Source: a virus
Length of the DNA stretch: 64,000 nucleotides
Virus record (IMG/VR): IMGVR_UViG_3300009130_000017
Span: 1-64,000 of that record
Direction: 5' to 3' (one strand)
The notes beneath the pieces were generated by a model that was not told the DNA's origin, ran no database searches, and worked only from the letters and a program-made list of their open reading frames with translations. Of the stretch, positions 11,207 through 54,968 are shown piece after piece. How positions within the stretch are numbered: position 1 is the first letter of the stretch; each line of letters starts with the position of its first letter. Position numbers and translations under genes: made by a program.

Positions 11207-13498
11207 ATGGCTTCTAATACACAATTAAGACTATTACAGATGACCGGTTCATTCGGTATCGGTGCTGGTCAAATTAACGATTCAACCGCACAGAAAGCGC
11301 AAACAGGCTCTATTGCCTCAGCGGATCTTGGTGAGTCGTTATCTTATATGGCAGCTGCTATCCGCCGTATTCACGGGGGTGATTGGTTCTCTAATCAGAC
11401 AGCAGGTGTCTTCTCACAAACGTTAACACCAAGTACTATTGGTGGTTTCGATCTTGGTTCTACGGGCGCAGAATGGGGTGACATTTTTGTTGCCGACGGT
11501 AAGAAATTAGCTCTCGGTAGCGGTCAAGAGTCTTTCATCATTGATAAAGGTCCTGGTCTTCAAATCGGTTCATCCGAAGTAATCGATATCGGTATTGACG
11601 CAAACACGTCAGATATCAATATTGGTACTATCAACCAGGCTAAAACAATCACAATCGGTGACGATGCTTCAACGAAAGTTGATCTTAACGCCCTCGCGAT
11701 TGAACTTGATTCTGCTGGAAGTATTGTTCTTAACTCTACCACGACAACCACTCTAGATTCTACTACTGGAATGTCTTTAGACGCTGGTGCTGCTTCTAAC
11801 TTCACCACTTCTGCTGGCGCTTTAACGCTTGACGGTGCTGCTGGTGTGAGCATCGTTGGTAACGCTGCTGAAGTTGATGTTACGACGAGTGCTGCTCTTG
11901 ATCTTAACTCTGGCGCAGGTTCATGGGATGCATCTACACTATCATTAGACGCAACTGATGATTCAAACTTCACTGTTACAACTGCAGCTAAGGATCTTAC
12001 CCTTGCTGTTGCCGGCGGTGGAGCTCAGAAACTTCAGCTTGATTCTGCTGGTACAGGTACAGACGCTATCGATATCAGCGCTTCTGCTGGTGGTATCGAC
12101 GTTGACGCTGCTGCTGCTGTTGACATTCTTGCTGGAACCACAATGACCATTAAGGGCGCAGGCGCTTCCATATATGGTGATGATACTGCAACCCTCGATT
12201 TCGACGGTGCAGGCGCTGTTTCTGAAACTGGCATGACTTCGTTTGTAATCACACCAGGCGGTGTTACTACACTCGGTGGTACCGGACTCGTTACGCTAGA
12301 CTCTTCTGGCGCAGCAAATGACATCAATATTGGTGTCGAAGCCGCTGCTAAGGATATTGTTATCGGTAATGCTGCTTCTGCGAAAGTTGATGTTAATGCT
12401 CTTGTCATTGAGCTTGATGCTGCTAGCAAGGTTGTAGTAGATGCTGCTAGTACTGATGCTGATGCGGTAGCTGTCACGTCCTCTGGTGGTATTGATATCG
12501 GCGCTGCGGGTGGTGCTGTGGATGTTACTACATCTGCTGGGAATAACGCTATTAACGTTCTCCCACACGGTACCGGTACATTGACACTTGGTGCTGATGC
12601 TAATACCAAGGTTGACGTTAACGCTCTCGCTATTGAGCTTGATGCAGGCGCAACTGGTGTTCTTATCGACTCCCTTGGTGGTGTTGCTGTCAATGCAGAT
12701 GATAACTCTAGACTTGATCTCTCTACCGCGGCGAAGGGTTGGGAAATCCGCGCAACTGGTGGCGGCACAAACAGAGTTTCATTGATCTCTAGTGGTACTG
12801 CTGCTAATTCTGTTGAGATCCTTGGTGGTGGTGGTGTTCAAATCCATGCTGATCCTGGAAAATCGATTAATGCTGGTACTGGTGGACAAGCTGAGCTTTT
12901 TGTCACTCCGCACACTACTGCTGCTGACTCTAAGATCTCCATGGTTGCTGAGAACGGTACTGCTGTCAACATAACAACACCTAACAGCAACGCTCTGTCT
13001 CTTCAGGCGCCTGCTGGTGGTTGCCACCTTAGTGGTGATGCTCTGATTTTCTCCGGCTCTGGTGTTAACGCGATTACTTTCGCTGCTGATGGATCGATGA
13101 CTTCTGGTGTTGGTAACAAGGGTATTCTCTTTGCAGACCACGCTGAGTATGCCACATTCCGTGCTAACAGTGGAATGAATGCTGGTACTACAGTCATTGG
13201 TGCTATTAACACTCTTGCAAGTCAGGTTTCTGGTGCTACCGCTACGGTCTTCACCGGTTCAATCGTTGCTGATGTGGCTGCCGGCGGAAACGTTACAGTT
13301 GCTAAGCAGGCTGGTGATAATGCTAACCTGGTGACTACTTGCGGAATTCAGAAAGTACAGACGTATGTAAACGGTCAGTTACTCGTTTCATCTTCCATTG
13401 GTAAGACGAACGATTATCAAATCACAGCTAATAACACCATTCAGTTCCAATTTGGTCTGAAGATTGGTGATATGGTTATGGTTATCGACCGTTCGTGA
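11207..13498 (+). CDS. Repetitive beta-rich fibre-like structural protein (763 aa)
   Basis: Residues 1-100 form a distinct N-terminal region (IRRIHGGDWF, then DLGSTGAEWGDIFVADGKKL). A long Ala/Asp/Gly/Thr repeat region follows, of the kind that forms beta-helical stems. A unit with the core KVDxNALxIELD recurs near residues 155, 390 and 466. DI(N/V)IG and DLTL strands are interspersed. The last 85 residues contain TYVNGQLLVSSS and a FQFGLKIGDMVMVID ending. That ending parallels the C-terminus of the 725-aa fibre, so the two probably share a trimerising or capping domain. ATG 11207 is preceded by AAGGAAAA. Codons are more GC3-biased than in neighbouring unknown genes, and a strong terminator follows, which suggests high expression. 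Confidence 0.7.
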   Translation: MASNTQLRLLQMTGSFGIGAGQINDSTAQKAQTGSIASADLGESLSYMAAAIRRIHGGDWFSNQTAGVFSQTLTPSTIGGFDLGSTGAEWGDIFVADGKKLALGSGQESFIIDKGPGLQIGSSEVIDIGIDANTSDINIGTINQAKTITIGDDASTKVDLNALAIELDSAGSIVLNSTTTTTLDSTTGMSLDAGAASNFTTSAGALTLDGAAGVSIVGNAAEVDVTTSAALDLNSGAGSWDASTLSLDATDDSNFTVTTAAKDLTLAVAGGGAQKLQLDSAGTGTDAIDISASAGGIDVDAAAAVDILAGTTMTIKGAGASIYGDDTATLDFDGAGAVSETGMTSFVITPGGVTTLGGTGLVTLDSSGAANDINIGVEAAAKDIVIGNAASAKVDVNALVIELDAASKVVVDAASTDADAVAVTSSGGIDIGAAGGAVDVTTSAGNNAINVLPHGTGTLTLGADANTKVDVNALAIELDAGATGVLIDSLGGVAVNADDNSRLDLSTAAKGWEIRATGGGTNRVSLISSGTAANSVEILGGGGVQIHADPGKSINAGTGGQAELFVTPHTTAADSKISMVAENGTAVNITTPNSNALSLQAPAGGCHLSGDALIFSGSGVNAITFAADGSMTSGVGNKGILFADHAEYATFRANSGMNAGTTVIGAINTLASQVSGATATVFTGSIVADVAAGGNVTVAKQAGDNANLVTTCGIQKVQTYVNGQLLVSSSIGKTNDYQITANNTIQFQFGLKIGDMVMVIDRS

Positions 13499-14205: not shown

Positions 14206-15147
14206 ATGGCTGGCATATTAGATAAGAAAACACGCTTTATGGATTCGTTCCTTACCACGATGGGAAGGGAACAGATGGCGAAGGGTGAGCTTAATTTTGC
14301 ATTCGCAATCTTTTCAGATTACGCTACATTCTATGAGTCTTCTCTAGAAGATCCAGATATAGCATCAGACGCTGTTAATCGAGTATTTTTTGAAGCTGCC
14401 AATCGACCGCAGGATCTAGTAATACCTGAATTTGATGATGATGGTGGGATTATTTACCCTGCTGGTGATTTTGATATGGTCAATGGTCAACTCAAGATCG
14501 TGACCGGTTCTTCGAACGCCAGCTTAACAGGAGAGTCTTTAATCACATCTGCCTCCGCTGCGATTAGTGACTGTATAGAGTCATTTGCTGCTATGCAGCC
14601 TTTACGGACGGAAGAGGTCCTTACTGACAGCACAGGATTTGAATTAAGCCAAAATACCGGAGAATTTTTAGTTACTACAAATCTACCTATTTCTCCTGGA
14701 GTTCCAACACAGATAAGTCTTTCTAATATTGAGAGCTTGTGGCAAGATAAGAAATTAACACATGTTCCAAATTACCAATTTAAGCCACCCGTTAACAAAA
14801 TTTCTAAGAAAGAGTTACGTACTTACCCCAAGCTTCAGCAACCGGCTCCGCATACATTTACTGATCTTGAGACCGAACTTGGCGCTAATGACCCAAGCGG
14901 TGAAACAGGTGTTGGGCCGCCAATCAGCCTAACATTTCCAGCGACCAGTAATGACAATAATCTTGTATGTCAGGTATGGGAAGTTTGTAGTGGCAGTATA
15001 AATAAATTACGCATGATTGATTTTGGGGAATTTGAAGACGGAGACCCATATAGTCCTGGTAAGCATGTCTTCTTTGTTGGAAAGCTATTCACTGATGATG
15101 GTGGTGGATCAACTTTCTTAAATCTATTTACTGTGGTTTTCGATTAA
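14206..15147 (+). CDS. Phage structural protein with LDxxTR-MGREQMAKG N-terminus (313 aa)
   Basis: The first 45 residues (LDKKTRFMDSFLTTMGREQM, then KGELNFAFAIFSDYATFY) follow a pattern I associate with a group of large-phage virion proteins that open with a T-x-x-G-R-x-x-(L/M) helix and a FAxFSD or FAxGDD strand. The 236-aa gene at 23303 opens in a similar way (VLTDYGRELLSRNDGSFSI...FAFGDDEVDY), so the two may be distant paralogs. The rest has no motif I recognise. The likely site is baseplate or tail, inferred from its location among other large virion-type genes. The stop overlaps the next start (TAATG). Confidence 0.6.
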   Translation: MAGILDKKTRFMDSFLTTMGREQMAKGELNFAFAIFSDYATFYESSLEDPDIASDAVNRVFFEAANRPQDLVIPEFDDDGGIIYPAGDFDMVNGQLKIVTGSSNASLTGESLITSASAAISDCIESFAAMQPLRTEEVLTDSTGFELSQNTGEFLVTTNLPISPGVPTQISLSNIESLWQDKKLTHVPNYQFKPPVNKISKKELRTYPKLQQPAPHTFTDLETELGANDPSGETGVGPPISLTFPATSNDNNLVCQVWEVCSGSINKLRMIDFGEFEDGDPYSPGKHVFFVGKLFTDDGGGSTFLNLFTVVFD

Positions 15148-17678
15148 TGATTTTTACACTCCCAACGATGAAAGACACCATGTCATTCGAGTCTTTTCCT
15201 GCTCGTCTTGTTGCTGTCACTGGGGAAAATGGTCAACGAATGTTTTTATATGAAATAGAAATGGCCGTTGATATTGAGAAGTGCATCTATAATGATGGCT
15301 TGACTATAGACATTGATATTCTTCCGAAGAAGCCCACCCCTATACTTGATAGAAAGCCTTCGAAAGTTAGCAGTGGTAGAGCTTTTACTCGAAAAACAAA
15401 AACCATGGAGCGTGATCTAAGGAAGGAGAAAAAGCTCAGACAAGAGAAGATTATTTGTCATAAAAAAGTTGACCTAACGAAATATGTTAGTAATTCTTTG
15501 GCGAAATTAATAAAACGAAGAAAATCACAAAAGAATACCAGGCTTGCAGCTGGTAGAAAAGGGCAATTTTCTTCTGTCTCTGGAGTGACTTCTGGAAAGA
15601 TGGCGTCTGTTTCATCAAATCCACTTGCGTCTTCACAAATTCTGATTGGGTCATCGCCTATTGCTTCCCCTCTAGCATCGCAGCCTGTGGCCACCACAAT
15701 ATCACAAAGAACTGTCATTCCGCTAAAGAGTATATCTAATTCTTTCCTTTCAGCAAAAACGGACCCTGCTCAGATAGCCAAGACCTCAGTGACACGTCTT
15801 CCATCGGCAGTTGGGGAGAAAGCACAAAGCTTTCTATTTACTCCCACATTGAAAACAGCGCCATTACCAATGTTTCGAATTTTTACCAAGAAGAAAAAAA
15901 TAAAATTCAGGGTGACAATTCTTGAAAAACGGTTGAAGTCTTTAGCAACTTATTACATCCGAGCAAGGCTGAGGAATGATAAGAGGGTTAAGCTGGAAGA
16001 GATCGGAACTGTCATTCAGCACTCCAAATTGTTAAATGATTATCTTACGCCTATAAAAGAGCCTCATATCGAAGCATCTATAATAAAAGCTGGAAAGATA
16101 TCTATCGGTGTTAGACAGGTAGACAATAAAGCAAAGTCTGTCCGCGTTTTTCGACGTACTGGACCTGCTGAGACCGGTGGCTCAGATGGTGGCTCTTCTT
16201 GGTCTGAGATTATTGAAACACCTCTACTTAGCACTGATGATGAGCTTCGATTCATAGATGATTTTGCAACAAGCAGAACAGTTATATATAGGGCCGTTGC
16301 CTTGGGGGAGAATATGAGGTCCGCGGAAGACTTTGGTTCTGCCGTACTACTGCCTATTAAAGAAATGAAGGTTGAGCAAACAACAGCACTATCTGCTGTC
16401 GCCACTGTTAATAATAATGGCGAGTCTGTGAGGATAACAGTTTCAGATATACCCACAGATGCAGTGTGTGTAATGCTCAGAAGGTATGATATGACTTATC
16501 ACTCATACTCATCCTTCCAGTCGGGAAAATCTGCTGGATTTGAGTTTGTGGGTTCAACCCCTGAGCAACAGCAGCAATATGTTGTTGGTGATTCAGACGC
16601 CAGTGTATCGTGGGTCGATAGACGAGTAAAGCTAGGACGAGATTATCGTTATGTGCCTATCGCAATAATGAAAAGAGGTAAAGAGGTTATTGGAACTGAT
16701 GCACTTATGGAGCTTCCGAATTCCACTGAAGATAACGATAAAGTTTCTCTCACGGCCCCTCGTCCAGTTACCATAGTTAAGAATCAAATTCCAGCAATTT
16801 CTTTTGAACTTAAAGCTGCGTTTACAGATTTTGGATTTGAAGAAGTAAAGTCTGCTCTTCAGACGGGTGATCAAGTTACTCTTTTCGATCAAGACCTTTT
16901 TCAAGAAAGAAGTAATTTTGCCGAATTAATAAATTTCTTGGTTGAGAGAGAAAATTTCGTGACGGGAGAAGTTGAGTCTTTTGGTGTGCATCAGCAGGGC
17001 CCTTTTGAAGATAATATTGAGACTCAAGCTGAAAAGAATGTCGCACCTCTACAGGTAGGAGTAAGATATGGGTATAGAGTGACAGCTCTTGTTAGGTCTG
17101 CTGAATCATTGTTCCCGAAGCTTGCGTCATCAACAGTTAATAGCGACACTCTTCTAAAATACAAGAGGGCAATCGGTAAATTTCGAAATCCTCTCGCTCT
17201 CCGAAGAGGTACGCTACAATCTACCTCTCGTCAAAATAATATGAATGCTCCCAGTAAAATTGAACCTGTGGATCCGTTCCTGGCCGGAAGAACTAATGTG
17301 CAAAAGAGGGTAGAGGTGAATATCCCCATTCCGTCGAAGCCTGGATTTAAGGTGATAAGTGAGAATCGTGGAGATAATCGACTAGTCAAATGGACATATT
17401 ATGGGCATCTGAATCAAATTGATCATTTTCAGATTTTTGCATGTACCGACGGAGGAAGACAATTATTGGGGACTGTCCATGCAGATTCTGCGTCTGCTAA
17501 TTTCATGTTTAGACATTTTACGAGAGGATATTCTACTTCTTATTTTTATGAAGTACATGCCATTAAATTAGACTATAAAGTTAAGGACCGATATCGATCT
17601 GCTGTTATCAAACCAAAACAGTATGACAAGCAATTAAAGCGTGGCTCCAGGACTTCTAAAAAGATAGTGAGATTATAA
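15147..17678 (+). CDS. Large unknown protein with FN3-like domains (843 aa)
   Basis: ATG 15147 overlaps the previous stop in TAATGA. Residues 1-250 are basic and partly disordered. Residues about 310-400 look like a beta-sandwich repeat (SVRVFRRTG ... VIYRAVALG). Residues about 730-835 form a good fibronectin-III-like unit (KPGFKVISENRGDNRLVKWTY ... FQIFACTDGG ... SYFYEVHAI). FN3-like modules are common accessory domains of phage tails and baseplates, where they bind surfaces or brace assemblies. The gene begins a three-gene run with the 1257-aa and 598-aa proteins, overlapping or nearly abutting them. No enzyme motif is visible. Confidence 0.6.
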   Translation: MIFTLPTMKDTMSFESFPARLVAVTGENGQRMFLYEIEMAVDIEKCIYNDGLTIDIDILPKKPTPILDRKPSKVSSGRAFTRKTKTMERDLRKEKKLRQEKIICHKKVDLTKYVSNSLAKLIKRRKSQKNTRLAAGRKGQFSSVSGVTSGKMASVSSNPLASSQILIGSSPIASPLASQPVATTISQRTVIPLKSISNSFLSAKTDPAQIAKTSVTRLPSAVGEKAQSFLFTPTLKTAPLPMFRIFTKKKKIKFRVTILEKRLKSLATYYIRARLRNDKRVKLEEIGTVIQHSKLLNDYLTPIKEPHIEASIIKAGKISIGVRQVDNKAKSVRVFRRTGPAETGGSDGGSSWSEIIETPLLSTDDELRFIDDFATSRTVIYRAVALGENMRSAEDFGSAVLLPIKEMKVEQTTALSAVATVNNNGESVRITVSDIPTDAVCVMLRRYDMTYHSYSSFQSGKSAGFEFVGSTPEQQQQYVVGDSDASVSWVDRRVKLGRDYRYVPIAIMKRGKEVIGTDALMELPNSTEDNDKVSLTAPRPVTIVKNQIPAISFELKAAFTDFGFEEVKSALQTGDQVTLFDQDLFQERSNFAELINFLVERENFVTGEVESFGVHQQGPFEDNIETQAEKNVAPLQVGVRYGYRVTALVRSAESLFPKLASSTVNSDTLLKYKRAIGKFRNPLALRRGTLQSTSRQNNMNAPSKIEPVDPFLAGRTNVQKRVEVNIPIPSKPGFKVISENRGDNRLVKWTYYGHLNQIDHFQIFACTDGGRQLLGTVHADSASANFMFRHFTRGYSTSYFYEVHAIKLDYKVKDRYRSAVIKPKQYDKQLKRGSRTSKKIVRL

Positions 17679-17679
17679 G

Positions 17680-20600
17680 ATGCCAGACTTAATTTCGGAT
17701 ATGAAGCTAGATTCTCTAGTAAACGTAGAAAAAGAAGAAGTGGTATCATTAATTGAGCTTCTATTAGGCAATCAAGCCACGACGTATAATAAAGAAAAAG
17801 AGCGAGCAAGAAATACATCCACACCCGGTGTGAAAGTCAAAAGTCGAAAAGACCGCAGACGGTCGGGAAGAAGCGCAAAAACAAGAAATAAGCAAAAGTC
17901 AAAGACTGGTTCATCTGTACAAAAGATGGAACAACTACGAGTAGCGAATATTCGTCAAGAAAAAAGAAAGCAGGCCCTCTTAAAATACCAAACGCAAAAG
18001 GGACAGAAAAAGACTTCACCCACCTCAGACCAGGCTGGTGATGCGGCATCATCGAAAAGGGCTGATACTAAGAGGGCTGAGAAAGAAGCCAATTCAATAG
18101 AGATCAATCCCGCAATGCGACCAGTTATTCTTGCGTTGATAGACTTCAAGCCTGTTTTTGATTCAGAATCAAATGTGACAGCTGTCGGTAATACGATTAA
18201 GGCAAAAAGGGCTGCTCGTGCTTTAAGAGTAGAGAACCTTTTAGATATCGATACATCAGAAGAATTAATAGGAGAATTGGACTGGCTCGCTGCTCATGTT
18301 TCAAATTTGGCGGCACAACAATCTTTTCTTGATTCACTTGATGCAACCAATATAGAAATGTATGAAGAGGCATTGTCAGCATTTGAGCTTGATTCCGCGT
18401 CTGTTTCTTCGGCTTCGAATACAGAGGTTTTATATACACTGATAAGAGACTACTGCTATTCATTAACATCTTGTACGCCACGCTTACTTGAATTATCGAC
18501 AAGAGAGTTCGAGGCTGGTTCTAAACTTGTGAAATGGGAAGGAGACCCGAATTATGTACGAAGGTCTTTGTCTTTCTCTACAGCCATTGGGGGGTTATAC
18601 GATCGTCTACCAGAAGATAGTGAGATTGGACTCCGGCAATTATTGGCGACAATTTCTAGAGAGCTGTTGTTGTCTTATAACAAACAACAGAACAATATTG
18701 ATGATGCAGATGCAGAGATATACCCTAAAGGACAAGGCAAAGCATATCAGGGATATGGTTTCTGTTCTTATCTAAACGTCTATCCAGGTACCTCAAAATT
18801 TCAACCACTTACCAAAGGAGTGTCTGAGAGCGATGCTTTTGGGACGTTTAATATGAATGGATTATTATATCCTTCCGTAGTGAATGGTCAAAAAGTTGCA
18901 GTCTATCCTTTCGAAAAATCTGAGTTAATCACATCCTCTCGTTATAAAAGCACTGACTCTGCTCCTGATGAAGTCAAAAAGATTTATGCCGCACAAGAAC
19001 CAGAGGCAGGACTAGCACCTTATTCAGAGATATCTTCAAGGTGGACAGATGCTAAAACAACAATCGAGGATTTGCTAGACACAGAAATGCTTGGCCTTGA
19101 TGGCTCACCAGGATCAGAGGTCTTGGAGGTGATTTGCAGAAATATAGTGCTAAAGTGTTTGGAGGCGTTACCCGAATCCTCAGCATCCTCAGCCGGTGTT
19201 TCTGATGCTTTACAAATTGCTTGGCTGTGTGCAGCTGGTAGGGATTCAGAAGCATGGCAGTGGTTATTTTTATATTTGGCGTTTTTGCAGGATCAAGTGT
19301 CGGGTGTAGCAATAACGGGAGAGCAAACAAATTTAGCTGCTCTTTCGTGGGTGGTTCGAAATGATTCAACTCTCATACAGTTGATAGGGAAACCGAGCTC
19401 CAGTACTTCAAAGACACAATTCTTTAGCGTGCCTGAATCAACAATATCTGTCACACCCAAACCAGACGATTGGTCGAACCCAACGACAATCGACCCAATG
19501 TCTGTGAAACAAAAAACAGAATTAGCTGAGGGGGAGTCATCAGAAAACTCATCTCTCCAATCATATTTTGACTTAACGTGGGAAGAGGTCTGTGAGCTGT
19601 GCGCGATGGGAATGCGCGCCAAATTATCTACAACAACCAATTCGACCGAGGACGAGTTATCAGACAAGACGACTGCGAAGGTTGATGATTTTAAAGAAGC
19701 CCTGATGGCGCTTTCCACTACATCTGACTCAATATTCTTAAGCTTACTAGAGCTATTAAATGATGCTGTGTTTTTATTCGGGAATAACTGCATTGACGAT
19801 CTAGAGTTGACGAATTACAGTCAGTTTCCCGCTAATCGATTACATGGTTTCATAATTCAAGCGGCCGCGAAAACTGCATCATTTTATATCGACGACCTTA
19901 CTTCAACCAGCGGCGCCATGTCGTCAGTTTTTGAAAGCTCTGCTTCTGATATTATCGCGTCTAGTGTATCCAAAGTTTCGAGTGGTGGTGGGTTGAAGAT
20001 TATGGGCCCGAGAATGGCTGCATCATGGAGCTCATCAGCAGAGTCTGGTACTTCAATTGCGGGCTTAAATATGACGTTCCAATATGCTGGGGTGGCTGAT
20101 CGTAAATCTGCATTGGAGACATTTCTTGACTCTGAAGAACAAGACGCCACACTTTTAGAAGAGCAGTCTTCTGCTCTATCTCGTACTTTCTCTGCATTAG
20201 ATGAAAATTATGAGTTTATATCAGGCTTTATAGAGTCTTTAGACTCTTACTTTTCGAATGTAAGGGACACATTTTCTGCTATTGTTGATGTAATTGTGGC
20301 AGATATAGACGAAGAGACAGAGGGGACACAGACCCTCATTGATAGAATTAGAGAGGGGCTTCCTTTATCTACTGATATGTGTAAGATGCTTCTAAATTAT
20401 ATTAGGGTTTATGATTCTTCTGATTCTACTTATCAAGACATTCGCACTAGAGATAAGGCTTTAGTATGTTCTAATGTGGCATTTATGTCAAGTATCCTAC
20501 AAGAAGAAGATTTTTGTGAGCCTGACAAGTTAAAGTATATGGTGGTTGGAATTCCAGCCGGTTGTCTTGACATGACAAAAGAAGATCCTGTTGATTTAGA

Positions 20601-21453
20601 AGAGGTTGATAGAGAGATAACAACGCCTTCAAGAAATAATTTTTCGGTGTCAATAGAAAAAGTCGACTTGACACGACCTGAGTTAGAGTATGAAGACAAA
20701 GAGTATTTATTTTCTAGAAACCTCTTTATCAATCAAATCGATGACAGCACAGAGGGTGAGATAATCGTAAACTTTGATAGTATCGATAAAGATTTCTCTG
20801 TGACAGAACAAGCAGAATCCGGACTTTCCTCTGAAACCTATAGCGATGAGCAAGTGAATAATCTTAAAAATGATTTCGCGCTTAAACTGTACTCTGATCT
20901 CTTTTTGGATTTAGACTTTTTCGAAGATGCTTATCCCAATGGCTCATCTCAGCGTAGGGATGTGCTAACTGGATCCATATCATTACCATCGCTGGATGGA
21001 GTAGATAAAGATGCAAATGCATTTTTATCAGGTAGTAATATAGCGTTTGATACAGATGATAGGAAGATCGAGGGCTTCACATTTTATTCTGAGGGCTCTG
21101 AAATGCTAAACATGGATTTGTTTAAGGACCTAGACCCCGTTGCGTTCTCTGTGTATTCTTATCTTAATTCTTATGGTACTGTTGCCAACGCGTCTGCAAA
21201 GAAAGATTCGTTAAAATATGGCACAATATTTGAGCGGGTTGTGGCGATTCCATTTGACCCTACATCATTTGAGGTTGAGATATCAACAGAAGACGAAACC
21301 TCTGCTGAGACGAATGCAAAAAATGAAAAGCTCACAGAGGCTGAAACTGAGGTAGGTATTGGATTGGAAACATCACAAGGCGTTGAGATGGCTAATTATA
21401 GGGTATATGTAACTATACCAGACACAGGAAGTGAGGAGACCACGTCAGAATGA
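17680..21453 (+). CDS. Very large unknown virion-type protein (1257 aa)
   Basis: I do not recognise this protein. The first 40 residues include a short helix (EEVVSLIELLLG). Residues about 38-150 are strongly basic and low-complexity (many Lys, Arg, Ser), and the remaining 1100 residues are acidic, helical and rich in Ser, Asp and Glu. There are no cysteine clusters, membrane segments or nucleotide-binding motifs. It starts one base after the previous stop, and its last four bases overlap the next start (ATGA), so the three genes from 15147 to 23246 are probably translationally coupled and act together. A structural or assembly role is inferred from size and position only. Confidence 0.6.
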   Translation: MPDLISDMKLDSLVNVEKEEVVSLIELLLGNQATTYNKEKERARNTSTPGVKVKSRKDRRRSGRSAKTRNKQKSKTGSSVQKMEQLRVANIRQEKRKQALLKYQTQKGQKKTSPTSDQAGDAASSKRADTKRAEKEANSIEINPAMRPVILALIDFKPVFDSESNVTAVGNTIKAKRAARALRVENLLDIDTSEELIGELDWLAAHVSNLAAQQSFLDSLDATNIEMYEEALSAFELDSASVSSASNTEVLYTLIRDYCYSLTSCTPRLLELSTREFEAGSKLVKWEGDPNYVRRSLSFSTAIGGLYDRLPEDSEIGLRQLLATISRELLLSYNKQQNNIDDADAEIYPKGQGKAYQGYGFCSYLNVYPGTSKFQPLTKGVSESDAFGTFNMNGLLYPSVVNGQKVAVYPFEKSELITSSRYKSTDSAPDEVKKIYAAQEPEAGLAPYSEISSRWTDAKTTIEDLLDTEMLGLDGSPGSEVLEVICRNIVLKCLEALPESSASSAGVSDALQIAWLCAAGRDSEAWQWLFLYLAFLQDQVSGVAITGEQTNLAALSWVVRNDSTLIQLIGKPSSSTSKTQFFSVPESTISVTPKPDDWSNPTTIDPMSVKQKTELAEGESSENSSLQSYFDLTWEEVCELCAMGMRAKLSTTTNSTEDELSDKTTAKVDDFKEALMALSTTSDSIFLSLLELLNDAVFLFGNNCIDDLELTNYSQFPANRLHGFIIQAAAKTASFYIDDLTSTSGAMSSVFESSASDIIASSVSKVSSGGGLKIMGPRMAASWSSSAESGTSIAGLNMTFQYAGVADRKSALETFLDSEEQDATLLEEQSSALSRTFSALDENYEFISGFIESLDSYFSNVRDTFSAIVDVIVADIDEETEGTQTLIDRIREGLPLSTDMCKMLLNYIRVYDSSDSTYQDIRTRDKALVCSNVAFMSSILQEEDFCEPDKLKYMVVGIPAGCLDMTKEDPVDLEEVDREITTPSRNNFSVSIEKVDLTRPELEYEDKEYLFSRNLFINQIDDSTEGEIIVNFDSIDKDFSVTEQAESGLSSETYSDEQVNNLKNDFALKLYSDLFLDLDFFEDAYPNGSSQRRDVLTGSISLPSLDGVDKDANAFLSGSNIAFDTDDRKIEGFTFYSEGSEMLNMDLFKDLDPVAFSVYSYLNSYGTVANASAKKDSLKYGTIFERVVAIPFDPTSFEVEISTEDETSAETNAKNEKLTEAETEVGIGLETSQGVEMANYRVYVTIPDTGSEETTSE

Positions 21454-45275: not shown

Positions 45276-46451
45276 ATGTCTTCTTTTGCTTATACTAAAA
45301 ATCCAACTCCTTTTAGCTTTTTTGATACTGATACCGAGTTCCAGACAGAAGCTGATGCTATGGTTTCGTTTGTCAAGAGAAAGTTAGGCGATGATATTCT
45401 CAGTGTTGAGCTAACAAAAAAGCAGATGTGGGCATGCTTTGAAGAGTCTTTTCTGGAATATGGCCGCATAATCAATGAAGCAGACGCAAAGTCACAGTTG
45501 GCAAATCTTCTTGGATACACAACTGGAAGTAATAAGACTGGACTTTTTCCAAAACAGAATCTCGAATTCCTTCTTCGAATGGCAGAACCATATTCTATGG
45601 AAGCTGGAATTGGTGGGTCTTATAACGAGGTTTCCGGCTCGATTCAGTTGGAATATAAACGACAAGACTATAATATATACGATGAGCTAAAAGATGGTGA
45701 TGGGAATCTTATTGTTTCAAGCAGTAGAAATTCTCCTCGTACAAAAATGAGGATCAAGGAAGTTTTCCACTTCAGCCCCCAGGCAGCCTATAGATTCTTC
45801 GATACGACGTCAGCTGTCAATTATCTTAATAATGAATTCAGTTTTGAGTCGTTTACTCCTGAGACGATTTTTTACGTCTTACCAGTCTTTGAAGATGTTC
45901 TCCGCGCTGGCCAGATGGACATATCGAACCGTGTAAGAAAATCAAATTATTCTTATAGAATTATTGGTGAAAGGATTCGAATTTATCCAATGCCTACTGA
46001 GCTGACTGGGTCAAATAACCCAATGAAGCTTTGGATTCGAGTCGCGTTTGCGCCGAATCCGTATGATCCTGACATTCAGGATGATACGATTTATGGGACG
46101 TCTAATCTGTCGAATGTTCCTTTTGGGCGGATGAGCTATAAACATACCAATTCTGTTGGCCGACAGTGGGTTCGGGAATATACACTTGCTTTGTGTAAAG
46201 AGCTTTTAGGGTTAGTCCGTTCTAAATTTGCCACTGTTCCTATACCGTCTGGTGACTTGAATCTCAACGGAGCTGATCTAGTTTCGCAAGGTCGCGAAGA
46301 CCAGACAAGGTTAAGAGACCAGCTCGTGGAATTACTTGACAGCTTAACTTATAGCAAACTCTTAGAAGGACAAGCTACAGATGCAGAAAATATTATGAGA
46401 GCCCTGAAGGCAATGCCAATGCCGCTGGGTAAATCTATCGTTATTAAGTGA
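45276..46451 (+). CDS. Neck/head-completion protein, gp13-like (391 aa)
   Basis: This protein probably binds the portal and closes the filled head for tail joining. Characteristic stretches are an N-terminal FVKRKLGDDILSVELTKKQM region, MRIKEVFHFSPQAAYRFFDT, and a C-terminal WVREYTLALCKELLGLVRSK with PSGDLNLNGADLVSQGRED. This C-terminal pattern is one I associate with gp13 homologs of T4-like phages. It is larger than T4 gp13 (309 aa). The order gp13-like, gp14-like, gp15-like, sheath, tube parallels the T4 head-to-tail cluster. Its ribosome site lies in a hairpin. Confidence 0.68.
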   Translation: MSSFAYTKNPTPFSFFDTDTEFQTEADAMVSFVKRKLGDDILSVELTKKQMWACFEESFLEYGRIINEADAKSQLANLLGYTTGSNKTGLFPKQNLEFLLRMAEPYSMEAGIGGSYNEVSGSIQLEYKRQDYNIYDELKDGDGNLIVSSSRNSPRTKMRIKEVFHFSPQAAYRFFDTTSAVNYLNNEFSFESFTPETIFYVLPVFEDVLRAGQMDISNRVRKSNYSYRIIGERIRIYPMPTELTGSNNPMKLWIRVAFAPNPYDPDIQDDTIYGTSNLSNVPFGRMSYKHTNSVGRQWVREYTLALCKELLGLVRSKFATVPIPSGDLNLNGADLVSQGREDQTRLRDQLVELLDSLTYSKLLEGQATDAENIMRALKAMPMPLGKSIVIK

Positions 46452-47137: not shown

Positions 47138-48466
47138 ATGGCGACAAGATATTCTTTAACAAAAGGGCAGTATCAGACAGTCGATTCCGGCTATGATAAT
47201 GGTGATGAAGCTAATGACTTCACAATGCCCTCTTGTACCATAGAAGACGTCGACCGCGGTGTTTTTGAGCTCTTTAATAAGGAATTACCTCTTTTCTACA
47301 AAAGAAAAGACCAGCAGAAGCGTATCCCCGTAATTTTCGCAACAGGTGAAAGATTTGCTATTCTTGCTAGAAATAAGCCATTACGAGACAAGTCCAATGC
47401 GCTGATTTTACCCTTAATATCAGTTATAAGAACCGGTATTGATCAAGAAGGTGCAAAAGGAGCTGGTCAATTTCAGGGCGGACCAATTACGGTAAAAGTG
47501 AAATTAAGCGAAGATGATTTGAGGTATCAAAGGTTACAAAACATTCATGGTTTCAAAAATTCGGACGAGTCCGCTATTGGAGCTTTTGCTAACCAGGATG
47601 ATGGAGATGGTGGGGGAACCACCAACGGTCGCCTTGCCACTAGAAGAGCTGCACCGTCCGTGACAGTCTCAAGCCGCCGCGGCACGCTCTTAACTCCTAA
47701 TCTTCGAAAGAATTTGGTAGAAATGATTCAGATCCCCCCTATCAAACAATACACTGCCACTTATGAAATTACGTTTTGGACACAATATACTCAAGAGATG
47801 AATTCAATGATCAATGTTTTGATGGGTGGGTATGTTGAGAATAGAAGACGAACATTTGTGATTGAAACAGAGACTGGGTATAGATTCTCTGCGTTTGTCG
47901 ACGCCGCGCTGACACCACAGAATAATTTTGATGATTTTACAGATGCAGAGAGATTAGTCAAATATAATTTCACAATGAGTGTAGCAGCTTATATGGTTGT
48001 AGCACAAGAGCCCGGAATGCCAGTGCCGTTTAGAAAAACAGTGTCTTCCCCTGATGTTCAATTTGGCGTAAGCCAAAATATTGGCGGCATTCCGGCCAGC
48101 CCACCACCCGCCGGTATCCCATCAGGAGATCCAATGGCATGGATTTTTGCAGGTGTCACACCAGCTGATGAAGGGAATCCCCCGGCAGGAATAGGGGCAC
48201 CGAAGGGCGCAGGGGCAATAGGTGGGTTCCCCGGTACCCCGACAGTTGAAGTGGGAGGACAGTCAGCGGCAAATCTTGCAGGTCCAGCGAGATTAACGAG
48301 TCCGAAGACTATAATTACAAGTATTAACCCCTTTACAGGAAAGAAAGAGCATCTCGAAATCATGATTTCAAGTGCAGATCCCAAAACGGGAGAAGCAGTT
48401 TTTAAGTTTAGTAAGAAGTCACCCAGTGGCATTGCTATTGATCTTGGGAAACTACTCAAAGATTGA
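47138..48466 (+). CDS. Tail completion/terminator protein, gp15-like (442 aa)
   Basis: In T4, gp15 caps the tail tube and sheath and joins the neck. Here IPVIFATGERFAILARNKPL (near 65-85), NALILPLISVIRTGI, IPPIKQYTATYEITFWTQYT and DAERLVKYNFTMSVAAYMV follow the gp15 pattern of a beta-sandwich with a central helix. The protein is longer than T4 gp15 (272 aa) because of an insertion (about 100-185) and a C-terminal Pro/Gly-rich extension (about 305-385, with PPPAGIPSGDP). It directly precedes the sheath genes, as expected. Confidence 0.65.
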   Translation: MATRYSLTKGQYQTVDSGYDNGDEANDFTMPSCTIEDVDRGVFELFNKELPLFYKRKDQQKRIPVIFATGERFAILARNKPLRDKSNALILPLISVIRTGIDQEGAKGAGQFQGGPITVKVKLSEDDLRYQRLQNIHGFKNSDESAIGAFANQDDGDGGGTTNGRLATRRAAPSVTVSSRRGTLLTPNLRKNLVEMIQIPPIKQYTATYEITFWTQYTQEMNSMINVLMGGYVENRRRTFVIETETGYRFSAFVDAALTPQNNFDDFTDAERLVKYNFTMSVAAYMVVAQEPGMPVPFRKTVSSPDVQFGVSQNIGGIPASPPPAGIPSGDPMAWIFAGVTPADEGNPPAGIGAPKGAGAIGGFPGTPTVEVGGQSAANLAGPARLTSPKTIITSINPFTGKKEHLEIMISSADPKTGEAVFKFSKKSPSGIAIDLGKLLKD

Positions 48467-48540: not shown

Positions 48541-51500
48541 ATGGCAGAGCAAACATTTAGATCCCCAGGTTTTTTCGAGCGCGAAATTGACGCGACCGCA
48601 AGAGAAACCTCAATCGTAGGCACTCCAGCAGGTGTTGTTGGAACCGCAGAAAAAGGTCCTGCATTCGTACCGGTAACGGTGGGAAGCATGACAGACTTTA
48701 TCAATAAGTTTGGCGATATTGATACGAATCGATTTGGTCCTTACGCTGTACAAGCATTCCTGGCCAACAGGACTGCTTTAACGTATATGCGGGTTTTGGG
48801 GGCTGGTGCAAATGAGAGCACCACCGATATTTCAAACACTCAAAATCTTGGCACTGTAAAAAATGCTGGATTTAAGATCGTTCCTGCGACATCGCAGTGG
48901 AACATTGATACCGCTAATGGTGGTGATGTAGGAAAGTACACCGACAGTTGCGTACAGTTTTTAGTGGCCAAACACTACGTTTCTGGTGCGACCGATTATT
49001 CTCACCCGATGTTCATTGATAACCCATCATTCAACATCTCTGGTGCAGGAACAGTTAATCTTGTTCGTGGTGTAATCTTTACCGCATCTGGAAGTCGTAT
49101 GCAGATTCTTGACATCGGTCAAGATTGGGCCGACAACCTTGATGCGCGCGCTGGCTTTACAAATGGTGGAAATCTTTTTGCGCTAGCAGTATCTTCATCT
49201 AGAGGTGGGGCTTACACATCGCAGTATGCTGCGACCGATAAGTACGGAAGAACGATCGCGGGACCAGGCGTAAAAATTATGACTGCATCGCTTGATCCTA
49301 CAAATAAGAATTACATCTCTAATATATTGAATACTGATCCCCTCAAGTTTTACGAGCATCAGCACCTTTTATATCTTGACTTTGCAGTTGAGGCTGAAAT
49401 TGCTGGCGTTGATGAGTCTGGTGGGGCATCCGCTGCTTATCCCCTTGGATTACTTTCTGGGTCAGGTGATAATCTTAATAATGCGCTTACCGGGGCATCA
49501 AGAAAAGCCCTAAGCGCATTCGGTCGCTTCGATACTAGATACACAACCGCAAAGACACCGCAGGTATTTTCGCAACCTTACGGTGGCACTGAATATCCCT
49601 TGGTTCACTTCGAGTCTCTTTCGGATGGTGAGTATGGAAGTAGTAACGTAAAGATTACTATAGCGAATCTACGGGCCTCTACGGATGGAAACTATCCATA
49701 CCCTGAGTTTGAAGTACAAGTTCGTAGGTTTGATGATTCCGATATGGACCCGCAAGTTTTGGAAACATATCCCGCTTGTAACCTCGATCCTACATCTGAA
49801 AACTTTGTTGCTCGAAGGATTGGTGACTATAAGGCACGGTATAACTTCGATGCTGAAAATGATGATGAAAAGAGAATTATCGTTACTGGTCGATATCCGA
49901 ACCTTTCGAATTTTGTTCGTGTAGTAATACACGAGTCAGTTTATAATCGCTTAGTTCCCAAAGATGCGTGCCCATTCGGCTTTAGCGGTGTCCCTGTTAT
50001 TAAGACATCAAACTCCATGACAGATTCTCCGAGGAGACGTCTTGAGATGGATGGTGTGTATTACGGCGCCGACGGTAGTGGCAGAATGTGGGGTGGCGGT
50101 GGATCATCGGCTGCTTCAGCTGGTCCATTGACAGGCTCTATTGTTCCCCCACTTCCGTTCCGCTTCAAGGTAACTCGTGGGAATGTTAAGAACAACTACA
50201 GTGGAATGGCTGGTGACCCAAGTTCAAGAGAGATTGTTGACCGCCGTCTAAACTGGGGTGTTAAGTGGAGCCGCTGTCCAGAAACGGGTAGTATGGCGTC
50301 TGCAAACCTCAATGTTAACGCATCAAACATCGCGAATCCGCTTATCAAGGCGTACACCAAGATGAATGGTATTGAGAAGCTTGATACGGTTACAACCGGA
50401 TCAGGTAGAGATGTTTTCAATGCGAACAAGTTCACATTGGCTCGAGTCGCTCTAGTTGGAACAGGTAGTAGTGGTCCTAATTTATTAACGTACGTTACAG
50501 GTACAGCGCAAGAGGTGATGAAAGAAGCATGCTATATTAGAAATGGTGTACCTGATTCGCAGACATATGCTGTTATGGATCCTGACAAGTCTGGCCAGGG
50601 CCGTGTAACTCTGGCAACACTGATTCAGTCCAGCTCAGTTAAGTTCAACCGATTCACTGCATATACTGCATTCAATATTCCGCTCTTTGGTGGATTTGAT
50701 GGTGTCAATATTCTTAATAGAGACATGTTCTACATGACAGATAGAGCGACTTCAACCGATGCAACGTCGGGTGGGTTAACCGGATTGGCTTCTGATGAGT
50801 TTAATCAAGGAACGATCGGTCTTGGTCCTAAGAACAGCGATGGTTCGATTACGAATCAGTCTGGTCAGGGCCGCTTGAACAACTATATCCAAGCTTATAG
50901 AAAAGCTGCTGAGATTATGACAGATCCAATGACCACAAGAATTAATCTTTTGGCCGTTCCTGGTATCCGTGATCCATATGTTACAGACCACGCAGCATTG
51001 AAGACGAAAGAATACTCCATGGCCATGTATGTAATGGATATTCCATCCTGGACTGAGAGTGAAACTCGTCTGTTCGGTGGTGAAGATAGCTCAAAGATTG
51101 CAAGCGCATCCTACTCATTACCAGATGTTAGAGAAACAGCTGAGCAGTTTGAGTCAAGAGTATTTGATAACAACTACACGGCAGCATATTTTCCAGATGT
51201 TTATATCACTGACAAGAACACGAATTCGAAAGTTCAGGTTCCAGCTTCTGTAGCCGTTATGTCCGCATTAGGGTATAACGATAAGGTCGCGTATCCCTGG
51301 TTCGCTCCAGCCGGTTTCAACCGCGGCGGACTTAGCATGGTAAGTAACACGTCCGTTAGACTGACAGCTGGTGATAGAGATGATTTATATGATGCGAGAG
51401 TTAATCCAATCGCGAACTTCTCGGATGGAAGCTTCGTAATATTTGGTCAGAAGACATGTCAACTAGCGAAATCAGCTCTTGACAGAGTTAATGTTCGAAG

Positions 51501-51795
51501 AATGTTACTTGAAGTTAAACGTCAAGTTGTTGCTATCGCTGACAAGATTCTATTCGAGCCTAACAATGACGCTACCAGAGCACGCTTCATCGGCCAGGTT
51601 ACACCACTCCTTGCGACTATTCAGTCCCAGCAAGGTATTGAATCCTTCAAGGTCGTGATGGATAACACTAACAACACATCAGAAGATGTTGAAAATAACA
51701 GACTAAATGGTCGCATCGTAGTCGTACCCACAAGAGCAATCGAATTTATTGCTATAGATTTTATCATAACAAATAGTGGTGTAGATTTTGCGTAG
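48541..51795 (+). CDS. Tail sheath protein, gp18-like, copy 1 (1084 aa)
   Basis: This is a contractile sheath subunit. The N-terminus (FRSPGFFEREID ... GTPAGVVGTAEKGPAFVPVT ... INKFGDID ... YMRVLGAG) and the C-terminal 200 residues (YNDKVAYPWFAPAGFNRGGL, VIFGQKTC, ALDRVNVRRMLLEVKRQV, FEPNND, IEFIAIDFIITN) are classic for the sheath family. These two parts build the conserved domain that interlocks neighbouring subunits. The protein is much longer than T4 gp18 (659 aa), so large outer domains are inserted in the middle. The ribosome site is AGGAGA. A second, divergent sheath gene follows after 35 bp. Confidence 0.93.
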   Translation: MAEQTFRSPGFFEREIDATARETSIVGTPAGVVGTAEKGPAFVPVTVGSMTDFINKFGDIDTNRFGPYAVQAFLANRTALTYMRVLGAGANESTTDISNTQNLGTVKNAGFKIVPATSQWNIDTANGGDVGKYTDSCVQFLVAKHYVSGATDYSHPMFIDNPSFNISGAGTVNLVRGVIFTASGSRMQILDIGQDWADNLDARAGFTNGGNLFALAVSSSRGGAYTSQYAATDKYGRTIAGPGVKIMTASLDPTNKNYISNILNTDPLKFYEHQHLLYLDFAVEAEIAGVDESGGASAAYPLGLLSGSGDNLNNALTGASRKALSAFGRFDTRYTTAKTPQVFSQPYGGTEYPLVHFESLSDGEYGSSNVKITIANLRASTDGNYPYPEFEVQVRRFDDSDMDPQVLETYPACNLDPTSENFVARRIGDYKARYNFDAENDDEKRIIVTGRYPNLSNFVRVVIHESVYNRLVPKDACPFGFSGVPVIKTSNSMTDSPRRRLEMDGVYYGADGSGRMWGGGGSSAASAGPLTGSIVPPLPFRFKVTRGNVKNNYSGMAGDPSSREIVDRRLNWGVKWSRCPETGSMASANLNVNASNIANPLIKAYTKMNGIEKLDTVTTGSGRDVFNANKFTLARVALVGTGSSGPNLLTYVTGTAQEVMKEACYIRNGVPDSQTYAVMDPDKSGQGRVTLATLIQSSSVKFNRFTAYTAFNIPLFGGFDGVNILNRDMFYMTDRATSTDATSGGLTGLASDEFNQGTIGLGPKNSDGSITNQSGQGRLNNYIQAYRKAAEIMTDPMTTRINLLAVPGIRDPYVTDHAALKTKEYSMAMYVMDIPSWTESETRLFGGEDSSKIASASYSLPDVRETAEQFESRVFDNNYTAAYFPDVYITDKNTNSKVQVPASVAVMSALGYNDKVAYPWFAPAGFNRGGLSMVSNTSVRLTAGDRDDLYDARVNPIANFSDGSFVIFGQKTCQLAKSALDRVNVRRMLLEVKRQVVAIADKILFEPNNDATRARFIGQVTPLLATIQSQQGIESFKVVMDNTNNTSEDVENNRLNGRIVVVPTRAIEFIAIDFIITNSGVDFA

Positions 51796-51830
51796 TATAG
51801 TTAAGAAGAGAATACAGGAGATTATTTCAA

Positions 51831-54800
51831 ATGGCTGAACTTACATTTAAGAGCCCGGGTGTTTCTACCAAAGAGATAGACCTTTCGGGTCCGACACAAA
51901 CCGGACCGAGCGGAGTACCAGCTGGAGTTATCGGAACAGCAGATCAAGGACGAGCATTTGTTCCAATAACAATGGCAACGTTCGCAGACTTTGTAGCTGA
52001 ATTTGGTAACACTGATGGCACAAAGTTTGGTCCTATGGCAATGAGACAATGGTTAACATATACTCAGGCTGGAACATATCTTAGAACCCTGGGTTGCGGT
52101 GATGGTAAGAAAAGGGAGTCGACAGGTGTCGTTACCAATGCTGGCTTCATAGTTGGTGAACAGTTACCGAAGGGTAACGGAATTCTTGGCGCCAATGTGT
52201 ACGCTGGCACAAGAAGTGGCGCGAACCCGGGCCCTCTCGGCAGAGCGCATTTTCTTGCAGTCTGTATGTCTGGTAGCAAAATGCCGAACTCTGATAAGAA
52301 TTACTTGCAAGAAGCAGGTCTTGAGTTAAGTGCTCCTGTCCTTCGTGGAGTTATTCTTGCAGCATCCGGTGTTTTACCCGCATTGAGCGCTTCTCGCGCC
52401 GCAGCGGGATCAGAGGGTACTCGTGGCACAGCTGGATATGGTGGTGGCCTTTTCTCAGGAAATAACCTTCCCCTTGGAGCTCCAACCGCACAGAATCTTG
52501 CCGCTGATACTGCATACGGGTCAGGTGGGACAAACAACGCTGGGTCCACACTCGGTGCCGTTGACATTGCTGGAGGAAAGCAAGAGTTTGTTCTTATGTT
52601 GAATGGGCACACTCATACAGATTCATTTCCTACAGTTATTACTGCTTCGTTTGACCCAACGGCTCCAAACTATCTTGGAAATGTTCTTAACACTGACCCC
52701 TTAGATGTTCAAAAAGCCGGCCATTATTTATATGCACATTGGCCAGTTTACCCTAACTTTGCCGTACCGACCGGCTCAAATTACATGGGTTATAACTATC
52801 AGCCCGCAGTTAATGCCGTGATTGGCTCTAGATTAACAAAGTACGAAGATATCGCTTTCCTTGTCACGTCTTCATTAGGAAGAAATGCCGGCAGCGCAAC
52901 GATTCCAGACTTTGAGGGATTCCGTGATAGATTCAGAACAGCACGTGCACCAAAAGTTATTTCACAGGCGTATGGTGGTTCTGAAAAAGATCTATTCCGT
53001 ATTTGGTGCTTGGACGATGGTGCCATTGGTAACCATCGCGTTAAGATTTCTATTGAGAATATCGTAAAATCAACAAACGTTAACAACAAATATTGCACAT
53101 TCGATCTTGCGGTTAGAGACTTTGAGGATACTGATGATCTTCCCGTGGTCATTGAGAAATTCCCTAAGCTCTCTCTTAATCCTCTCGATGAGAGATATAT
53201 CGCAAGAGTCATTGGTGATTACCACTTGTATTATGATTTCGATAAAAGGGCCGGTTCACAGAAGCTTGTTGTTGAGGGTTCTTACCCCAACCGCTCGAAC
53301 TATATTCGAGTTGAGCCAGTTGACGCATTAGACAAGGGAGAAATTCCCGCTGATGCTTTACCCTGCGGTTTCCGTGGTATTGATCACTTAGTAACATCAG
53401 GATCTAGTATCTTTAAGATGACATCTGCTGACTTCGCTCCAAACCTTGGTTCAGATACATTCCCAACCGCAAATATCGTACAGCCACCTATTCCATTCCG
53501 GTCTACGGTTTCAAGAGGAAAATCTCCTAGAAAAGTTCTCTCTTCCCAGCTTTACTGGGGTATCCAGTTTGAGGTGAAAGATAACATAGATGAGCCGAAT
53601 AAGAGCACAGTCATGGATACGTCCATCAAGAATTATGGAACGTATTTCCCAGACTTCAGGCAAGATCAGCAAGCAGCGATGGTTGGAGACAATGTCGGTA
53701 CAGCTGATAGTTCTGGTACCATATTTGATTGTGACCGTTTTAATAACAACAAATTCTCACTTGAAAATGTCCAAGTTGTTGTAACAGCGGCTGATAAAGC
53801 AGACTCCAACCAGTGGGCTGCTGCGACATATCGTCGAGCAGGCGCGGCAGAAAATATGGCAGATATTGACGGGTCAACAAAAACAACGGCTTCTGGACTC
53901 ACAAGACTTCTTAGCGTTGAAAAAGACTTTGGTCTTTCATCGGTTAGGAAATTCCTCAAGTTTACATTCATGGCCCAAGGCGGTTTCGACGGACTTAACA
54001 TCTTTGACAGAAATAAGTTCGACATGACCTCAACTGCCTGTAAGAGAGAGATGGACGACTCCACTCAGGGTGAAACCAGTGGACCGACTGTTGCAGCGTA
54101 TAGAAAAGCGCTAGATATTCTTGAGCAACGTTCAGATGTGAATATCCAGCTTCTAGCTATTCCAGGTATTAAGCACGAATCAGTTACAGATTATGCGATC
54201 ACGACTGTTGAAGATCGCTTTGATGCTCTTTATGTTATGGACATTGAGACAACGGACACCCTTGGTAACGTAGTTACGGGCTCAAATGAGATTGTTAGTG
54301 TAACCAACACGGTGGCAGATTTCACAAGTCGTAATCTCGACTCATCGTTCGCAGCCGCATACTTCCCAGATGTAATCATGGAAGAAGTTAATACAGGACA
54401 GAATGTTGTTGCCCCCGCAAGTGTTGCGGTCTTAGGTGCATTTGGTCTAAACGACAAGATTGCATATCCTTGGTTCGCGCCAGCTGGTTTCACTAGAGGT
54501 GCTCTTAAGCATGTTAGAGAAGCAAGTGTGAAGCTGAATAGAGGAAACTTAGATGCGCTATATGACGCTGATATTAACCCAATCACCGCATTCCCTCAAT
54601 CAAAGGAAGTCGTGGTTTTCGGCCAGAAGACACTTCTCGCAGCTCAAAGCGCTCTCGATCGTGTCAATGTTCGCCGCCTGTTAATCGATATTCGACGTCA
54701 GGTCCGAGCGATTGGAGATACATTCCTCTTCGAACCAAACAGGGAAGCAACTCTCGCGAGATTCTCCGCAGCTGTTAATCCGATTCTAGCCAGAATACAA

Positions 54801-54968
54801 CAACAGCAAGGTCTTGATAGGTTCAAGGTACAGATTGATGCAACCACAACAACACAGGCTGACATCGAGAACAACACAGTTAGAGGAAAGATATTCCTCC
54901 AGCCCACCCGTTCGGTCGAGTTTATATCACTAGATTTTGTGGTAACTAACGCCGGCATGGACATTTAA
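51831..54968 (+). CDS. Tail sheath protein, gp18-like, copy 2 (1045 aa)
   Basis: This is a tandem paralog of the preceding sheath. The N-terminus (FKSPGVSTKEIDLSG ... GVPAGVIGTADQGRAFVPIT ... YLRTLGCG) and C-terminus (LNDKIAYPWFAPAGFTRGAL, VFGQKT, ALDRVNVRRLLIDIRRQV, FEPNRE, VEFISLDFVVTNAG) align with copy 1 at roughly half identity by eye. The central regions differ more, including a distinct Gly-rich insert around residues 190-250. Both copies keep the interlocking core and have strong ribosome sites (AGGAG), so both are probably made in quantity. Whether they mix in one tail is unknown. Confidence 0.92.
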   Translation: MAELTFKSPGVSTKEIDLSGPTQTGPSGVPAGVIGTADQGRAFVPITMATFADFVAEFGNTDGTKFGPMAMRQWLTYTQAGTYLRTLGCGDGKKRESTGVVTNAGFIVGEQLPKGNGILGANVYAGTRSGANPGPLGRAHFLAVCMSGSKMPNSDKNYLQEAGLELSAPVLRGVILAASGVLPALSASRAAAGSEGTRGTAGYGGGLFSGNNLPLGAPTAQNLAADTAYGSGGTNNAGSTLGAVDIAGGKQEFVLMLNGHTHTDSFPTVITASFDPTAPNYLGNVLNTDPLDVQKAGHYLYAHWPVYPNFAVPTGSNYMGYNYQPAVNAVIGSRLTKYEDIAFLVTSSLGRNAGSATIPDFEGFRDRFRTARAPKVISQAYGGSEKDLFRIWCLDDGAIGNHRVKISIENIVKSTNVNNKYCTFDLAVRDFEDTDDLPVVIEKFPKLSLNPLDERYIARVIGDYHLYYDFDKRAGSQKLVVEGSYPNRSNYIRVEPVDALDKGEIPADALPCGFRGIDHLVTSGSSIFKMTSADFAPNLGSDTFPTANIVQPPIPFRSTVSRGKSPRKVLSSQLYWGIQFEVKDNIDEPNKSTVMDTSIKNYGTYFPDFRQDQQAAMVGDNVGTADSSGTIFDCDRFNNNKFSLENVQVVVTAADKADSNQWAAATYRRAGAAENMADIDGSTKTTASGLTRLLSVEKDFGLSSVRKFLKFTFMAQGGFDGLNIFDRNKFDMTSTACKREMDDSTQGETSGPTVAAYRKALDILEQRSDVNIQLLAIPGIKHESVTDYAITTVEDRFDALYVMDIETTDTLGNVVTGSNEIVSVTNTVADFTSRNLDSSFAAAYFPDVIMEEVNTGQNVVAPASVAVLGAFGLNDKIAYPWFAPAGFTRGALKHVREASVKLNRGNLDALYDADINPITAFPQSKEVVVFGQKTLLAAQSALDRVNVRRLLIDIRRQVRAIGDTFLFEPNREATLARFSAAVNPILARIQQQQGLDRFKVQIDATTTTQADIENNTVRGKIFLQPTRSVEFISLDFVVTNAGMDI

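What the first reader, a model, noticed from the sequence alone, without database searches (positions are those of the whole stretch)
48541..54968. Two tandem, divergent long tail sheath genes
Both ORFs (1084 and 1045 aa) have complete sheath N-terminal and C-terminal core regions and strong ribosome sites, and their C-terminal 200 residues are roughly half identical by eye. T4 and most myoviruses have a single sheath gene (659 aa in T4). Two retained, diverged copies imply either a mixed sheath (alternating or zoned subunits) or two functional versions. Large, different central inserts would give the tail surface two kinds of outer domain. The very long tape measure implies a long tail that may need this.
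Basis: partly seen in the sequence, partly recalled or inferred. Interest (0 to 1): 0.72.

Follow-up and report, generated by a model that had tools for sequence, protein, structure and literature searches.

The report
Phage tail with two sheath proteins
A large group of uncultured T4-related phages carries two ancient, side-by-side versions of the protein that forms the contracting tail sleeve, both kept intact by selection, so their tails are probably built from two kinds of subunit; two-sheath phages were already known, but not this tandem, lineage-wide form.

Summary
ORFs 48541-51795 (A, 1084 aa) and 51831-54968 (B, 1045 aa) are both full-length tail sheath proteins with intact cores, homologous along their whole length (37% identical; last 200 residues 56%). 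Relatives show one ancient duplication: A and B form two sister clades beside single-sheath lineages. In 129 of 131 distinct relatives A is followed by B; both exceptions look like broken A ORFs. Both copies evolve equally fast under strong purifying selection (dN/dS about 0.04-0.07), diverge in parallel and share one tube gene. In one sub-lineage (L204) the interlocking cores were homogenised while the outer domains stayed A-type and B-type, which fits two subunits sharing one lattice. Two-component sheaths are already known (PaBG, Alexandravirus, Salmondvirus; PVC/AFP injection systems), so this is a new variant of a known kind. Whether A and B alternate or occupy zones cannot be told from sequence.

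The parts
48541..51795 (+). tail sheath protein A, 1084 aa
   Evidence: phrog_23 5e-64, PF17482, PDB sheath matches Z 19.7, A clade 100/100 in the core tree
51831..54968 (+). tail sheath protein B, 1045 aa
   Evidence: phrog_23 1.2e-57, PF17482/PF04984, PDB sheath matches Z 25.3, B clade 100/100 in the core tree
55012..55500 (+). tail tube protein (gp19-like), 162 aa; the only tube gene found
   Evidence: phrog_4542 1e-29; one tube per locus in 162 of 163 loci
55524..55551 (+). terminator-like hairpin that would close an A-B-tube transcription unit
   Evidence: 12-bp stem with T tail; no + strand site in the A-B or B-tube gaps, only weak sites inside genes
47138..48466 (+). 442-aa protein just upstream of A, conserved at that position; candidate neck or sheath-terminator protein
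   Evidence: conserved neighbour in relatives (159 hits); no PHROG or Pfam match, function inferred from position only
55614..56477 (+). T4-type baseplate hub protein
   Evidence: PF12322 1.5e-15, phrog_150 2e-19
57071..62650 (+). presumed tape measure protein, 1859 aa
   Evidence: position and length; no PHROG match; relatives vary in length
45276..46451 (+). head-tail adaptor Ad2-like protein, 391 aa
   Evidence: phrog_211 2.7e-10

Best explanation
A and B are paralogous tail sheath proteins from one old tandem duplication, and both are structural subunits of the same contractile sheath around a single tube. Both keep the N-terminal arm, the C-terminal interlocking core and the C-terminal strand by which sheath subunits polymerise, so they can share one lattice, as alternating or mixed rings in the body of the tail or as separate zones. 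They have divided the outer surface: A stays compact, B carries the variable and sometimes very large surface insertions. Shown: both genes complete, old, paired, under purifying selection, next to a single tube gene. Inferred: both in the virion, sharing a lattice, division of labour on the surface. Not determined: ratio and arrangement.
For: Sheath fold and core in both. One duplication: A and B sister clades, together 100/100 apart from single-sheath lineages. Pairing 129/131; exactly two sheaths in each of 16 long records of 77-369 kb. Equal divergence (0.47 and 0.485), mirror-tree r 0.84 with 0 of 2000 permutations as high, dN/dS about 0.04-0.07 in both. One tube gene, adjacent genes with good ribosome sites, terminator after the tube. 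L204: outer parts group with A (99/99) and B (100/94), cores group with each other (100/100; membership of the A or B clade rejected, p 0.003 and 0.0009); same arrangement in a second contig L246 and a diverged copy 1 in L247. B longer than A by over 100 aa in 17 of 72 nonredundant pairs, never the reverse; the large inserts examined all lie at about B residue 130-230, mostly 162-170, which aligns with T4 gp18 residues 129-136. Precedent: both PaBG sheath proteins were found in its virion proteome (PMC7412058).
Against: No virion proteomics or microscopy exists for this lineage. An arm-core covariation test favoured neither arrangement: arms correlate more with their own core than the other's (N arm 0.66-0.71 against 0.47-0.48), but lying in one protein gives the same effect. 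The L204 segment boundaries were chosen after looking at the windowed identities; it is one lineage. Model B is of moderate quality (pLDDT 69, pTM 0.63).
Confidence: 0.8

Rival explanations
1. Zoned sheath: one copy builds nearly the whole sheath and the other only one or a few special rings at the baseplate or neck, as thought for Pvc3/Pvc4 beside Pvc2. (A sub-case of two proteins in one tail, so it overlaps the best explanation.)
For: PVC and AFP have tandem sheath paralogues of which Pvc2 is the main component (PMC6748792, PMC8894135). Arm and core of the same protein covary most. In L200/L202/L205/L212 a third, fast-diverging copy lies after the tube, which looks like a specialised minor ring.
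Against: A and B are equally conserved, similar in length in most genomes, and both keep both arms; a minor copy might be expected to differ more. The L204 core homogenisation suggests general compatibility, though it does not exclude zones.
Confidence: 0.35
2. Alternative sheaths: A and B are used in different particles or conditions (for example two tail types), not together.
For: Two functional versions are formally possible; there are no virion data.
Against: Adjacent genes (gap 26-85 bp as a rule), no terminator between them, same strength of ribosome site, single tube, no sign of a switch; 102 of 103 loci in the first census.
Confidence: 0.05
3. One copy is a non-sheath derivative (for example a chaperone, cap or decoy) that kept the fold but no longer polymerises.
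For: Paralogues can change role; not testable without experiments.
Against: Handshake parts conserved in both; few fixed A/B differences (12 of 149 columns conserved in both), only one of them in the N-terminal arm; full sheath fold in both models.
Confidence: 0.06
4. Assembly or binning artefact (chimeric or duplicated contig).
For: The record is metagenomic.
Against: The same pair occurs in over 100 distinct, diverged sequences from many samples.
Confidence: 0.005

Closest known systems
Two-component tail sheath of Pseudomonas phage PaBG (Baikalvirus) and of Alexandravirus, Salmondvirus and Yoloswagvirus phages
   Same: Two diverged sheath paralogues (38% identical in PaBG) from a duplication, both in the PaBG virion (PMC7412058, PMC8472413).
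   Different: There the genes lie apart (gp76 and gp213 in PaBG; about 30 kb apart in JA29) and sheaths are ~550 aa; here tandem, ~1050 aa, T4-type, and a separate duplication (the one PaBG sheath tested falls with T4 and S-CREM1).
PVC/AFP contractile injection systems (Pvc2-3-4, Afp2-3-4)
   Same: Neighbouring sheath paralogues building one sheath (PMC8894135, PMC6748792, PMC12961389).
   Different: Three small proteins (354-451 aa), tube paralogues too, no head; distant in sequence.
T4 gp18 and cyanophage/T4-like sheaths
   Same: Same fold, same core, same gene order sheath-tube; 23-24% identity.
   Different: Single gene of ~660-750 aa.
Microcystis phage Mel-JY01 and Flavobacterium phages immuto
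   Same: Closest isolated relatives by sheath, terminase and capsid.
   Different: One sheath gene (709-812 aa).
LR756508, uncultured 484-kb phage
   Same: Two sheath genes near each other.
   Different: Its copies do not fall in the A or B clades; separate origin; tube about 7 kb downstream.

Membership tests
Tail sheath protein family (gp18-like), protein A | sheath core by sequence profile | tested here: met
   phrog_23 5e-64; PF17482 5.5e-10 above cut-off
Tail sheath protein family (gp18-like), protein B | sheath core by sequence profile | tested here: met
   phrog_23 1.2e-57; PF17482 7e-07 above cut-off
Tail sheath protein family | sheath fold from N-terminal to C-terminal domain | tested here: met
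   PDB second look: A Z 19.7, B Z 25.3, top 50 rows sheaths
Tail sheath protein family | N-terminal arm and C-terminal strand for the handshake kept | tested here: met
   both ends among the most conserved regions in both clades; by sequence only, the arms themselves are modelled with low confidence
Tail sheath protein family | forms the contractile sheath in virions | not testable with these tools
   no isolate
Two-component tail sheath (as a kind) | two sheath paralogues in one genome | tested here: met
Two-component tail sheath (as a kind) | both proteins in the virion | not testable with these tools
   needs proteomics
PaBG lineage of two-sheath phages | descends from the same duplication as PaBG's | tested here: not met
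   A and B are each other's sisters; the PaBG sheath tested groups with T4/S-CREM1 outside
PVC/AFP-type multi-sheath system | tandem sheath paralogues together with tube paralogues | tested here: not met
   single tube gene

The most novel reading that the evidence does not exclude
The sheath of this lineage is an obligate heteropolymer in the tail body (A and B in fixed alternation), in which A is the conserved scaffold and B a display subunit whose outer domain is a hotspot for large insertions, with core compatibility maintained by occasional gene conversion.
Probability: 0.3. Interest if true: 0.75.

Novelty: new variant of a known kind. Interest (0 to 1): 0.48.

Why it matters
Contractile phage sheaths are usually described as a one-protein machine. 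A whole environmental phage lineage that has kept two sheath proteins since its origin, and adds third copies repeatedly, shows that multi-component sheaths are a stable evolutionary solution and not a curiosity of a few jumbo phages. It gives a testable question (alternating, mixed or zoned) and natural cases (L204 core homogenisation, B-only giant inserts, three-copy genomes) that help answer it.

Tried and rejected
Long-tail explanation: tape measure candidates in two-sheath relatives run from about 640 to 1859 aa (some short ones may be split over two ORFs), and single-sheath relatives have candidates of 1006-1348 aa, so no link was found. 'Different central inserts': rejected, the middles are homologous. 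Gene conversion in general: rejected for the lineage as a whole, A-B identity within a genome 0.362 against 0.361 between genomes; found only in the L204 lineage. Arm-core covariation to tell alternating from zoned: inconclusive. Pfam on the giant B inserts: no domain recognised. In the tree the rows JA29_1 and JA29_2 were read in wrong frames and are to be ignored; the correctly read JA29 sheath fell outside, with T4 and S-CREM1. Third sheath elsewhere in the 77-kb record: none.

Full report
Observation. The two ORFs are at the stated places: A 48541-51795 (1084 aa) and B 51831-54968 (1045 aa), 35 bp apart, same strand. Both are tail sheath proteins by PHROGs and Pfam, by similarity to solved T4-type sheaths and by predicted structure: the A model (pLDDT 78, pTM 0.77) and the B model (pLDDT 69, pTM 0.63) both match sheath proteins throughout the 50 listed entries, from the N-terminal domain to the C-terminal core. 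A and B are 36.7% identical over 950 columns and 55.8% over the last 200 residues.

Surroundings. The window lies in a 77-kb virus record, probably a fragment, of a T4-related phage: terminase, portal, protease, capsid, adaptor, two conserved neck-side genes, A, B, tube, T4-type baseplate hub protein, presumed tape measure. Closest isolates are Flavobacterium phages immuto and Microcystis phage Mel-JY01 (terminase 39-41% identical; capsid), which have one sheath gene. A, B and tube have good ribosome sites, and a strong terminator-like hairpin follows the tube, with none in the A-B and B-tube gaps. There is one tube gene here and in 162 of 163 loci with a tube.

One old duplication. Five scans of viral contigs and one of genomes gave about 260 loci, some sharing contigs. 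Trees place A and B as two clades that are sisters (careful tree: A+B+C 100/100 against single-sheath lineages). Among distinct sequences with enough flank, 129 of 131 A genes are followed by B within 1.5 kb; the two exceptions look like A ORFs broken into fragments. Sixteen long records (77-369 kb) have exactly two sheath genes each (three listed matches are one ORF in two pieces). The single-sheath lineages with ~1000-aa sheaths (such as L227-L235, L138, L139) lie outside the clade. The first loci were found by similarity to A or B, so lineages with only one copy of another kind are under-sampled, but A-only or B-only members of these clades would have been found and were not.

Both copies are kept. 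In 41 nonredundant pairs the two proteins diverged at the same rate (median 0.47 and 0.485), their distance matrices agree (r 0.84; 0 of 2000 permutations as high, maximum 0.17), and there is no general gene conversion (A-B identity 0.362 within and 0.361 between genomes). dN/dS against close relatives is 0.044-0.073 for A and 0.055-0.074 for B (dS is near or beyond saturation, so these are rough).

Shared lattice. In L204 (and the identical pair in a second contig, L246; diverged copy 1 in L247) the interlocking cores of the two genes are closer to each other than to either clade (100/100; membership of A or B rejected, p 0.003 and 0.0009), while the outer part of copy 1 is A-type (99/99) and that of copy 2 is B-type (100/94). 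The simplest reading is gene conversion of the core with the outer domains kept apart: the cores are interchangeable and two outer domains are wanted. The boundaries were set after looking at the data, and this is one lineage.

Division of the surface. B is longer than A by more than 100 aa in 17 of 72 nonredundant pairs and A longer than B by that much in none (not phylogenetically independent). The large inserts (about 600 aa in all in the 1794-aa B of L079) sit mainly at B residues 162-170, which align to T4 gp18 residues 129-136, in the part that, from established knowledge of gp18, protrudes from the tail. No Pfam domain was recognised in them.

Third copies. At least three separate later duplications of B occur: L072; L108/L114; and L200/L202/L205/L212/L280, where the third copy lies after the tube and is very diverged. 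Its place within B is weakly supported because of its long branch.

Mechanism. Committed reading: both proteins are subunits of one sheath around one tube (confidence 0.8). Within that, alternating or mixed rings and separate zones remain open; the covariation test on arms and cores was inconclusive.

What is known. PaBG has two sheath proteins, 38% identical, both found in the virion, from a duplication (PMC7412058); Alexandravirus, Salmondvirus, Baikalvirus and Yoloswagvirus share this (PMC8472413); a survey noted that some phage genomes encode two sheaths (PMC9230969). PVC and AFP have several sheath proteins (PMC8894135; PMC12961389). No paper on a tandem T4-type pair was found in the held library, which lacks most subscription journals. 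The PaBG sheath tested falls with T4, so the duplication here is separate.

Verdict. A real two-component sheath lineage, with both proteins probably in one lattice; arrangement unknown. The tape-measure argument is not supported. New variant of a known kind; moderate interest.

Noticed in passing
L201:7224-7979, L254:6426-7456, L262:925-2002, L263:971-2064, L272:7120-8421: GIY-YIG-like homing endonuclease ORFs (242-376 aa, recognised by eye) lie between sheath A and sheath B; L203 has a similar ORF there.
   Followed up: partly
L200, L202, L205, L212, L280: A third, very diverged sheath gene follows the tube gene, giving the order A-B-tube-C-gp26.
   Followed up: partly
L079:3503-8887, L082:3497-8422: Giant sheath B proteins of 1794 and 1641 aa with about 560-600 aa inserted at the surface hotspot; no recognised domain.
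   Followed up: partly
L123 (LR756508) 11020-13494 and 14509-16983: An unannotated 484-kb phage genome has two sheath genes, both 824 aa, of another origin, with the tube gene about 7 kb further on.
   Followed up: no
window 2155-8640, 15147-21453: Several very long ORFs (2161, 843, 1257 aa) without any PHROG match upstream of the structural genes.
   Followed up: no
L028:1970-5093, L045:3064-6096, L065:5054-8203: Sheath A split over two or three ORFs, by frameshift, sequencing error or an insertion.
   Followed up: no
L144-L160: Bacterial genomes carry a sheath that is 618 aa in many of them, possibly an injection system or prophage tail.
   Followed up: no
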